Shown in pieces: positions 1 to 47,868 of a DNA stretch of 64,000 nt. The translations under genes were made by a program, and so were the position numbers. The notes beneath the pieces were generated by a model that was given only the letters and a program-made list of their open reading frames with translations, was not told the origin of the DNA and made no database searches. Numbering within the stretch: the first letter of the stretch is position 1; each line of letters opens with the position of its first letter. The DNA comes from Klebsiella pneumoniae (GTDB lineage: Bacteria; Pseudomonadota; Gammaproteobacteria; Steroidobacterales; Steroidobacteraceae), in the NCBI GenBank assembly GCA_945873095.1, contig CAMCBU010000006.1, positions 1 through 64,000 on the forward strand, read 5' to 3'.

Positions 1-133
1 TCGGCGGTATCTTTCTGTTGCACTTTCCGTGGGCTCGCGCCCCCCAGGCGTTACCTGGCACCGTGTCCGAAGGAGCCCGGACTTTCCTCCCCATTTCTTG
101 CGAAATGCAGCGATCACCTGGCCGACTCCGGTG
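1..133 (-). ncRNA. rnpB: RNase P RNA (class A), 5' part, truncated by window edge
   Basis: Reverse complement reads GGGGAGGAAAGTCCGGGCTCC...GGTGCCAGGTAACGCCTGGGGGG...GTGCAACAGAAAGATACCGCCGA, the conserved RNase P RNA core; exact 5' end approximate. Confidence 0.95.
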
Positions 134-36874: not shown

Positions 36875-36904
36875 GAGCGGCGGAGGCCTATCGACCTCCG
36901 CCGC
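36867..36904 (-). terminator. Rho-independent terminator between riboswitch and gcvT (likely expression platform)
   Basis: Minus strand: perfect 10-bp stem GCGGCGGAGG/CCTCCGCCGC, 8-nt loop, then a U-rich tract (A8 on + strand). Confidence 0.85.
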
Positions 36905-37100
36905 CCCTCTGTCCTTGAACCTGAGAGATCGGGTACTTGCCGTACCGCTCCCCTTCGGTGGGCTCCCGGTGGGGAGCCGCTCTCCAGAATTCGCCTGCGA
37001 CCTGCCGTTCTTTTGCCTGAGCGTTTCCGGGCGGAAACTTGCGCCTTCGGCGTCCGAAGCCGCCCTAACGGGGCGCTCGAATCTCTCCGGCGAGGTCTGA
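36903..37100 (-). promoter_or_regulatory. Tandem glycine riboswitch (two gcvT-element aptamers)
   Basis: Minus strand: CCGGAGAGATTCGAGCG...CTCAGGCAAAAGAACGGCAGG...CTGGAGAGCGG...ATCTCTCAGGTTCAAGGACAGAGGGG directly upstream of gcvT. Confidence 0.95.
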
Positions 37101-45639: not shown

Positions 45640-45800
45640 TTTGGTGTACCCTTTCGGCGGCGTCACCTGCCGTGTTCGATAGTGAATCGGGTTACCTCTC
45701 GACCCTAAGTTTGAACGCCCAGGGGCATCAAGGCTTGCTGTCAGCATTGTGCATGTCCGCCTCGAGCGGAAAGCCTTACCTGACGTAGTCCGCCCCACTT
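45640..45800 (+). ncRNA. ssrS: 6S RNA (boundaries approximate)
   Basis: Located between zapA and fau, the conserved gammaproteobacterial position; GTGCATGTCCGCCTCGAGCGGAAAGCCT resembles the conserved 6S 3' segment. Confidence 0.75.
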
Positions 45801-45869
45801 GTTGCTCTGTGTCGAGAGCAACGGTTCACACCGGCACTGGCGGGTGACGTCTGCGATTTTCTCGAGGGA

Positions 45870-46487
45870 GTGTTCGATTTGAGCGACTGCGTGCCGCTCG
45901 CCGCTCGGGCGGCTTTGCGACGGGAACTGCGGCGGCGTCGAGCCTCGCTGTCGCAGTCGGAACGCGCAGCGGCGCACCGCCAAGTCGCACGGCACCTCGC
46001 GAGACTCGGCCGGCTCCGACCGGGCTTGCGTGTCGGCATCTACCTGCCCATCGGCGGTGAGTTCGATACGACGCCACTGCTTGAACTCTTGCGCCGACGC
46101 CGTTGTGTCGCCTACCTCCCTCGCATCACCACCGCGCGCGCGCAGCGGATGACGTTCGCGCGAGTGACGCCGAATCTTCGGCGAAATCGGCACGGTATCC
46201 TCGAGCCGAAGGGGCACACCCACACACCCGCACAAGACCTAGATCTGATCTTGCTGCCCTTGGTGGGATTCGATGCACACGGCCACCGCTTGGGCAGCGG
46301 TGCAGGCTATTACGACCGTGCGCTGTGTTTTCGTCGCCGACGAAGCTACTGGCGCGGGCCCACACTCATCGGCATCGCTTACGAATGCCAACGAGTCGCT
46401 GCACTCGCAGCAAGACCCACCGACATTCCGCTCGATGCGGTCATCACCGAACGTGGAATCGCATTCTTCATCGGAGAAATTACATGA
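45870..46487 (+). CDS. fau: 5-formyltetrahydrofolate cyclo-ligase (start uncertain)
   Basis: RAALRRELRRRRASLSQSERAAA; DLILLPLVGFDAHGHRLGSGAGYYDR. Confidence 0.93.
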   Translation: MFDLSDCVPLAARAALRRELRRRRASLSQSERAAAHRQVARHLARLGRLRPGLRVGIYLPIGGEFDTTPLLELLRRRRCVAYLPRITTARAQRMTFARVTPNLRRNRHGILEPKGHTHTPAQDLDLILLPLVGFDAHGHRLGSGAGYYDRALCFRRRRSYWRGPTLIGIAYECQRVAALAARPTDIPLDAVITERGIAFFIGEIT

Positions 46488-46948
46488 AGTATTGGCTGAT
46501 GAAGTCTGAACCGTCGACATTCAGCATCGACGATCTTGCCAGCGCACCCCGCCGGACGACCTGCTGGGACGGCGTGCGCAACTACCAGGTGCGAAACATG
46601 CTGCGCGACGAGATGGTCGTCGGCGATCTCGCCTTCATGTACCACTCGAGTTGCGACGAGCCGGGCATCGTCGGCGTGATTGAAATCGCGAAGCCGGGTT
46701 ATCCCGATCACACCGCCTTCGATCGCAAGCACGAGCACTACGATGCGGCGTCGCAGCCCGAAGCGCCGCGTTGGTACATGGTCGACGTGCGCTTGAAACA
46801 GCGTTTTTCTCGAGTGATTTCGCTCGATGAGCTGCGTCGTCACGAGTCGAAACAACTGCGCGAGATGTTGCTCTTGAAGCGCGGCAATCGTCTTTCGATC
46901 ACACCCGTCGATGCATCGCACTGGAAGTTCATCCTGTCGCTGCAGTGA
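46484..46948 (+). CDS. EVE domain-containing protein
   Basis: MKYWLMKSEPSTFSIDDLASAPRRTTCWDGVRNYQVRNMLRDEM. Confidence 0.95.
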   Translation: MKYWLMKSEPSTFSIDDLASAPRRTTCWDGVRNYQVRNMLRDEMVVGDLAFMYHSSCDEPGIVGVIEIAKPGYPDHTAFDRKHEHYDAASQPEAPRWYMVDVRLKQRFSRVISLDELRRHESKQLREMLLLKRGNRLSITPVDASHWKFILSLQ

Positions 46949-46962
46949 GCAGCGCTGACCGC

Positions 46963-46992
46963 TTGCTTGTTTTTTGCAATCGCGTGTATATA
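46963..46992 (+). promoter_or_regulatory. Putative sigma70-like promoter of the small basic peptide gene
   Basis: TTGCTT and TATATA separated by 18 nt, 37 nt before the ATG at 47029. Confidence 0.5.
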
Positions 46993-47028
46993 CTCGCTCT
47001 CGGACTAACCCGTAACTGGAGAAATACA

Positions 47029-47097
47029 ATGGCTAAGGCCAAAAAGAAAGCTAAGGCGAAAGCTAAGGCTAAGAAGAAGGTCGCCAAGAAGAAGTAA
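47029..47097 (+). CDS. Lysine/alanine-only 22-residue basic peptide MAKAKKKAKAKAKAKKKVAKKK (histone H1-like composition)
   Basis: ATG preceded by GGAG at 47018-47021 (7-nt spacing), TAA at 47095-47097; promoter-like sequence upstream and strong terminator downstream. Confidence 0.75.
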   Translation: MAKAKKKAKAKAKAKKKVAKKK

Positions 47098-47157
47098 GAC
47101 TCTTCGTGAGTCTCGGCGAGTGGGATGAGAATCGCATTCGCTGTCTTCTGAAAGACA

Positions 47158-47192
47158 AGAAGGTGCCCGCGCAAGCGGGCATCTTCTTTTTT
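47158..47192 (+). terminator. Rho-independent terminator
   Basis: AGAAGGTGCCCGC-GCAA-GCGGGCATCTTCT, about 13-bp stem with one G.T pair, followed by T-rich tract. Confidence 0.92.
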
Positions 47193-47208
47193 GCCCGAGG
47201 AAAATCGC

Positions 47209-47868
47209 ATGAATCACGCTGATAACGGTAAGCAAGCAGCAGCGCTCGCAGCACTGCGCTATCTCGAGGACGGCATGGTGATCGGCGTTGGCACCGGCTC
47301 GACGGTCAATCACTTCATCGATGCGCTTGCGCCCTGGCGTGATCGCCTGAAGGGTGCCGTGTCGAGCTCGGATAGCTCCACCAGCCGTTTGCGTTCGATC
47401 GGTATCGAGGTCGTCGACCTCAACCGGACGGGTGATCTTGAACTCTACGTTGATGGCGCGGACGAGACGGATCGGCATCGTCGACTCATCAAGGGCGGCG
47501 GCGGCGCACTCACCCGCGAGAAAATCGTTGCGGCCGCATCGCGTCGCTTCGTCTGCATCGTCGATGAGAGCAAGGTGGTCGATGTGCTCGGTCGCTTTCC
47601 GCTGCCGGTCGAAGTGATTCCGATGGCACGCTCGTATGTGTCGCGGCAAATGGTGAAGCTCGGTGGGCAACCGCTGTGGCGCGAGAACGTGGTCACCGAC
47701 AACGGCAATCAGATCATCGACGTGCACGGACTGACGATCCTCGATCCGATCGCGCTCGAGAACAGCATCAACGGTATCGCCGGCGTCGTCGCTGTTGGTC
47801 TGTTTGCAAGGCGCGCCGCCGATGTCGTCCTGGTGGGCGGTCCGAGCGGCGTTCGTACCCTCGACTGA
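47209..47868 (+). CDS. rpiA: Ribose-5-phosphate isomerase A (alternative start at 47191)
   Basis: [47 protein letters not shown]. Confidence 0.96.

What the first reader, a model, noticed from the sequence alone, without database searches (positions are those of the whole stretch)
46963..47192. Stand-alone gene for a 22-aa Lys/Ala peptide (MAKAKKKAKAKAKAKKKVAKKK)
The sequence shows a complete small transcription unit: TTGCTT-18-TATATA, GGAG seven nt before ATG, 22 codons of only Met/Ala/Lys/Val, TAA, then a strong intrinsic terminator. The composition resembles the Lys/Ala tails of histone H1-like proteins (e.g. Bordetella BpH1, chlamydial Hc proteins), but with no other domain. It is below usual ORF-caller length limits and is absent from the supplied ORF track. 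Inference: an abundant nucleoid-, RNA- or polyanion-binding micropeptide.
Basis: partly seen in the sequence, partly recalled or inferred. Interest (0 to 1): 0.78.

Follow-up and report, generated by a model that had tools for sequence, protein, structure and literature searches.

The report
Histone-H1-like protein shrunk to micropeptide
An unannotated gene for a 22-residue, almost pure lysine/alanine peptide is real: it is kept under protein-level selection throughout one bacterial family and sits exactly where related bacteria carry a 60-200-residue histone-H1-like protein, so it looks like a bacterial 'histone tail' reduced to its bare minimum.

Summary
A promoter+leader model finds the gene in 141 of 151 Steroidobacteraceae genomes; of the ten misses, one was seen to carry it, two have contigs that begin at or just after it, and seven give no inspectable locus. 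160 extracted loci give about 50 peptides of 14-34 aa (one of 61) made of K, A and a few T/S/V/G/P. Differences fall on third codon positions (211 of 284; dN/dS about 0.17), and rpiA lies downstream in 154 of 160. In other families of the order, and in other Gammaproteobacteria, the same promoter and leader drive 58-198 aa Lys-rich, histone-H1-like repeat proteins, often in the same place (fau-EVE-X-rpiA, or convergent with ilvA). The peptide is therefore a miniaturised ortholog of an H1-like protein; shortening probably happened at least twice, with one re-expansion to 61 aa. Most likely function: a polycation that binds DNA (or RNA/polyphosphate) electrostatically. Binding, abundance and translation are untested. 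Attenuator-leader and RNA-only readings are disfavoured.

The parts
46963..46995 (+). promoter: upstream element TTGCTTG...TTT and extended -10 TGTATATACTC (core TATACT 46989-46994)
   Evidence: nearly invariant columns in 50 loci with long and short ORFs; model R1 from it finds Lys-rich ORFs class-wide
46996..47028 (+). transcribed leader CGGACTAACCCGTAACTGGAG with Shine-Dalgarno GGAG 47018-47021
   Evidence: conserved in Steroidobacteraceae; a leader-only pattern retrieves Lys-rich ORFs in 55 of 59 hits
47029..47097 (+). 22-aa Lys/Ala peptide MAKAKKKAKAKAKAKKKVAKKK (69 nt with TAA)
   Evidence: frame conserved in 160 loci, dN/dS about 0.17
47098..47156 (+). structured 3' UTR: hairpins between stop codon and terminator
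   Evidence: equivalent hairpins in 12 same-genus loci despite changed stem sequences; fold z -5.9 for the whole transcript
47157..47193 (+). intrinsic terminator (14-bp stem, GCAA loop, T-run)
   Evidence: terminator-like stem downstream in 155 of 160 family loci
46484..46948 (+). EVE-domain protein, conserved upstream neighbour
   Evidence: Pfam PF01878, E 1e-52; synteny
47209..47868 (+). rpiA, conserved downstream neighbour
   Evidence: Pfam PF06026, E 2e-58; present downstream in 154 of 160 loci

Best explanation
The locus encodes a genuine micropeptide that is the miniaturised ortholog of a Lys-rich, histone-H1-like repeat protein encoded at the fau-EVE-rpiA/ilvA locus of many Gammaproteobacteria. 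SHOWN: the gene, its conserved cis-elements, purifying selection on the Lys/Ala/small-residue sequence, near-universality in Steroidobacteraceae, and common position and common promoter/leader with the long forms. INFERRED: a strong promoter with a structured 3' end yields much peptide; the peptide (+13 from lysines in 22 residues, no acidic residue) is disordered in solution and binds DNA, and possibly RNA or polyphosphate, by charge, screening the backbone and helping to compact or coat the nucleoid, as H1 tails and AlgP/Hc/BpH1 repeats do; what is selected is charge density and the K/A pattern rather than length. RpiA is probably made partly by read-through of the terminator.
For: Frame and composition conserved in 160 loci, 113 distinct ORF DNAs; 211 of 284 nearest-neighbour differences at third codon positions, dN/dS about 0.17, p 5e-49. 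Promoter+leader model hits 141/151 family genomes, 94/96 of good quality; of the ten misses one (G234) was seen to carry the peptide, two (G156, G192) have contigs that begin at or just after the ORF, and seven gave no inspectable rpiA locus. In 15 of 20 non-family order loci the same place holds a long H1-like ORF (94-194 aa where complete) with homologous promoter and leader; class-wide hits of the model start 58-198 aa Lys-rich ORFs. A leader-only pattern with no coding bases retrieves Lys-rich ORFs in 55 of 59 public contigs. The RpiA tree puts short forms in two separate places and a 61-aa form next to the window's genome. Published precedent for DNA/polyphosphate association of such tails: AlgP (PMC9239181).
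Against: No transcript, ribosome or peptide data. A 16-22-mer polycation may bind too weakly at cellular salt to act as a nucleoid protein. Low-complexity sequences cannot be joined by residue-level homology, so orthology rests on synteny and cis-elements. Curated H1-like models do not reach their cut-offs even for the long forms.
Confidence: 0.62

Rival explanations
1. The peptide is a leader peptide: ribosome progress over its Lys codons controls the terminator and so the expression of rpiA (attenuation).
For: Short Lys-rich ORF, then terminator, then rpiA in the same orientation in 154 of 160 loci, with rpiA close behind the terminator.
Against: No conserved anti-terminator pairing between the upstream transcript and the terminator's 5' arm (mean z 0.02 over 21 loci). 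Orthologs are 58-198 codons long; in some lineages the downstream gene is ilvA on the opposite strand (L155, L164, L167, L171, ilvA named by eye from its sequence). RpiA has no special link to lysine.
Confidence: 0.07
2. The conserved product is an RNA (an sRNA or a stable 3' UTR), and the ORF is incidental.
For: Strong fold (z -5.9) and hairpins kept in the genus.
Against: Third-position bias and dN/dS about 0.17 in the ORF; ORF lengths vary in whole codons with stop and composition kept; the sequence between stop and terminator outside the genus changes greatly or is nearly absent; no Rfam family at gathering score.
Confidence: 0.05
3. The peptide is a polycation whose main partner is not DNA but RNA/ribosomes or polyphosphate (granule spacing, condensates).
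For: AlgP, with an H1-like KPAA tail, associates with polyphosphate granules and is required for their even spacing (PMC9239181); charge alone does not choose among polyanions.
Against: No partner gene for polyphosphate or ribosome biology is conserved at the locus apart from neighbours of other function; H1-like proteins of known function mostly bind DNA (background knowledge).
Confidence: 0.24

Closest known systems
AlgP (AlgR3) and PhaF C-terminal H1-like domains, Pseudomonas
   Same: Lys/Ala-rich disordered polycation with short repeats, DNA-binding, gammaproteobacterial
   Different: AlgP has a 124-aa N-terminal helical domain and a 195-aa tail rich in KPAA (PMC9239181); the window peptide has 22 aa, no other domain, no proline, and its own conserved locus and promoter
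BpH1 / NCBIfam NF038053 (histone H1-like DNA-binding protein, Burkholderiales) and chlamydial Hc2 (Pfam PF07382)
   Same: Lys/Ala-rich repeats make up much or all of the protein; length varies by repeat number (Hc2 165-237 aa, PMC2848022)
   Different: long orthologs score only 13-15 bits against a cut-off of 80 (NF038053) and 7.7 against 40 (HC2); here length falls to 14-22 aa, far below any Hc2 variant
Coxiella ScvA and Hq1
   Same: small basic DNA-binding proteins of a gammaproteobacterium, enriched in the small cell variant (PMC4766238); ScvA is about 30 aa (from memory), the nearest size precedent
   Different: ScvA is Gln/Arg/Lys-rich rather than Lys/Ala (from memory) and developmentally regulated; its locus and promoter were not compared here

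Membership tests
EVE-rpiA-linked gammaproteobacterial H1-like repeat gene (defined here by locus and cis-elements) | same genomic position (between fau-EVE and rpiA, or next to convergent ilvA) | tested here: met
EVE-rpiA-linked gammaproteobacterial H1-like repeat gene (defined here by locus and cis-elements) | homologous promoter and leader | tested here: met
   alignment A1; model R1 and the leader-only pattern retrieve both short and long forms
EVE-rpiA-linked gammaproteobacterial H1-like repeat gene (defined here by locus and cis-elements) | Lys-rich product with Ala and small residues, lacking acidic and aromatic residues | tested here: met
Histone H1-like HC2 (PF07382) | profile match above curated cut-off | tested here: not met
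   no match for the 22-aa peptide; best long ortholog 7.7 bits against 40
Burkholderiales H1-like protein (NF038053) | profile match above curated cut-off | tested here: not met
   no match for the peptide; long orthologs 13-15 bits against 80
H1-like nucleoid proteins as a functional class | binds DNA in vitro and in vivo | not testable with these tools
   needs EMSA and ChIP
Attenuation leader peptides | alternative anti-terminator pairing with the terminator arm | tested here: not met
   mean z 0.02 over 21 loci

The most novel reading that the evidence does not exclude
A whole bacterial family has replaced a ~100-200 aa H1-like chromatin protein with a dedicated, near-universal 14-27 aa polycation: perhaps the smallest histone-like protein known, showing that charge alone, with no fold and hardly any length, suffices for the function. 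A second lineage did the same independently.
Probability: 0.35. Interest if true: 0.78.

Novelty: new variant of a known kind. Interest (0 to 1): 0.62.

Why it matters
H1-like tails are usually studied as long repeats; here evolution has run the length-reduction experiment over about 150 genomes, giving a natural series of 14 to about 200 residues from the same promoter and place. That makes 'how short can a functional H1-like tail be?' directly testable.

Tried and rejected
Pfam, NCBIfam, PHROGs, PDB and Rfam: no family. Literature searches for the sequence, for EVE/rpiA with lysine-rich small proteins, and for H1-like proteins of Steroidobacter: nothing. Attenuation: tested, rejected. RNA-only: rejected by codon-position bias. 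Apparent absences in 10 family genomes: checked with rpiA; one carries the peptide, two are cut by contig edges, seven show no inspectable rpiA locus, so no loss could be verified. A search for a second H1-like gene in the window's genome with a 97-aa ortholog found none, but it did not find the 22-aa gene itself either, so it proves little. Structure prediction was not tried: the peptide is below the 30-aa limit and low-complexity models would be uninformative.

Full report
WHAT IS THERE. At 46963-47193 (+) there is a promoter-like TTGCTTG...TGTATATACTC, a leader CGGACTAACCCGTAACTGGAG, an ATG at 47029 seven nucleotides after GGAG, 22 codons MAKAKKKAKAKAKAKKKVAKKK, TAA, further hairpins, and a 14-bp intrinsic terminator with a T-run (fold z -5.9). 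The neighbours are 6S RNA (45661-45850), fau, an EVE-domain gene (46484-46948), then rpiA (47209-47868) (Pfam). The strict consensus scanner does not flag the promoter, but conservation does: in 50 loci TATACT and the CT(T/G)G element are nearly invariant.

IT IS A CONSERVED CODING GENE. A DNA search of 60 relatives found the same locus across the genus and family, and all 30 retrieved loci keep a Lys/Ala frame. A sequence-only model of promoter plus leader hits 141 of 151 family genomes and 94 of 96 of good quality. The family is Steroidobacteraceae: several contigs of the same loci bear that name in the public collection. Of the ten genomes without a hit, G234 carries the peptide at the very edge of a contig, G156's contig begins in the last codon of the ORF and G192's just after it, inside the terminator; the other seven give no complete rpiA locus. 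So absence was not verified in any genome, though seven cannot be judged. From 163 family loci, 160 gave an ORF: 113 distinct DNA sequences, 52 distinct readings of 14-34 aa plus one of 61 aa (counted among the 52), built of K, A and some T, S, V, G, P (H and R rare; a few listed N-terminal extensions such as MEITT- are upstream ATGs). Nearest-neighbour comparisons within length classes give 38/35/211 differences at codon positions 1/2/3, 182 synonymous and 102 non-synonymous, dN/dS about 0.17, binomial p 5e-49. This is a simple count, not a tree-based estimate, and related pairs are not independent, but the direction is unambiguous. A terminator-like stem follows in 155 of 160 loci and rpiA in 154.

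IT IS A SHRUNKEN HISTONE-H1-LIKE PROTEIN. In other families of the order, the gene between EVE and rpiA is a long Lys-rich repeat protein, 94-194 aa where complete (e.g. L038 97 aa, L041 188 aa, L060 159 aa), with a recognisably homologous promoter (TGCTGGAATTT...TATATACTC) and leader (CGGTTAACCCGACACGGAGA). Of 20 such loci, 15 have it, four (L053, L055-L057, one family) have EVE next to rpiA with nothing of the kind between, and one is cut by a contig end. A pattern made of -10 and leader alone, without a single coding base, returned 59 public contigs, 55 of which start a Lys-rich ORF of either the short or the long kind. Class-wide, the model hits 35 of 387 genomes; of the loci inspected, all but one start a Lys-rich ORF, 58-198 aa outside the family. 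In several of these the context is fau-EVE-gene-convergent ilvA (ilvA recognised by eye). Orthology thus rests on position plus cis-elements; residue-level homology cannot be shown for such low-complexity sequences.

DIRECTION OF CHANGE. On an RpiA tree (59 rows, quick method, weak backbone) the short forms fall in two places: Steroidobacteraceae, and a separate lineage (L083, L090: 20 and 24 aa, no EVE seen upstream, branch support 99). The 61-aa form groups with the window's genome (support 94), so it is best read as a re-expansion. Loss of the gene maps to one subclade. Long forms dominate elsewhere, so reduction is the likelier direction, although rooting is not secure.

MECHANISM. With 13 lysines in 22 residues, no acidic or aromatic residue and one valine, the peptide can hardly fold or catalyse; the established chemistry of such sequences is electrostatic binding of polyanions (background knowledge). 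Precedents: AlgP's KPAA tail, which binds DNA and is needed for polyphosphate granule spacing (PMC9239181); Hc2, whose size varies from 165 to 237 aa with Lys-rich repeats (PMC2848022); [quoted passage not shown] I commit to a DNA-coating/compacting role as likeliest, polyphosphate or RNA as the main alternative. Abundance is inferred only.

RIVALS TESTED. Attenuation of rpiA: no conserved anti-terminator pairing (mean z 0.02), orthologs of 58-198 codons, and lineages in which the downstream gene is convergent ilvA. RNA-only function: contradicted by codon-position bias, although the 3' UTR hairpins are kept within the genus and may stabilise the mRNA. rpiA starts so close behind the terminator in the window that read-through from the peptide promoter is likely; this is inference.

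CLASSIFICATION. No Pfam, NCBIfam, PHROGs, PDB or Rfam family covers it; the H1-like models HC2 and NF038053 are approached only by long orthologs and far below cut-off. It works, most likely, like an H1-like protein; it is not a member of those curated families. New variant of a known kind.

Noticed in passing
window 36902-37100 (-): Tandem glycine riboswitch (two aptamers, 55.5 and 39.9 bits, Rfam RF00504).
   Followed up: no
window 1-129 (-): RNase P RNA (class A), cut by the window edge.
   Followed up: no
L021 1567-1752 (also L101): The same gene re-expanded to 61 aa (KAKAKVKT repeats) in a genome whose RpiA groups with the window's.
   Followed up: partly
L053, L055, L056, L057: Members of one related family lack the gene altogether; rpiA then follows EVE directly.
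   Followed up: partly
L083 1532, L090 489 (and L084 7070): 20-24 aa forms in a second lineage, with no EVE gene seen upstream.
   Followed up: partly
L065, L080, L064, L077, L096, L104: The locus in bins labelled Planktophila, Janthinobacterium or Rhodospirillales/Rhodospirillaceae: probably contaminating contigs or mislabelled bins.
   Followed up: no
L155-L178: A promoter CTGGAAATTT...TTGTATATACTC is kept upstream of H1-like genes across distant Gammaproteobacteria, better than the proteins themselves; what regulates it is unknown.
   Followed up: no
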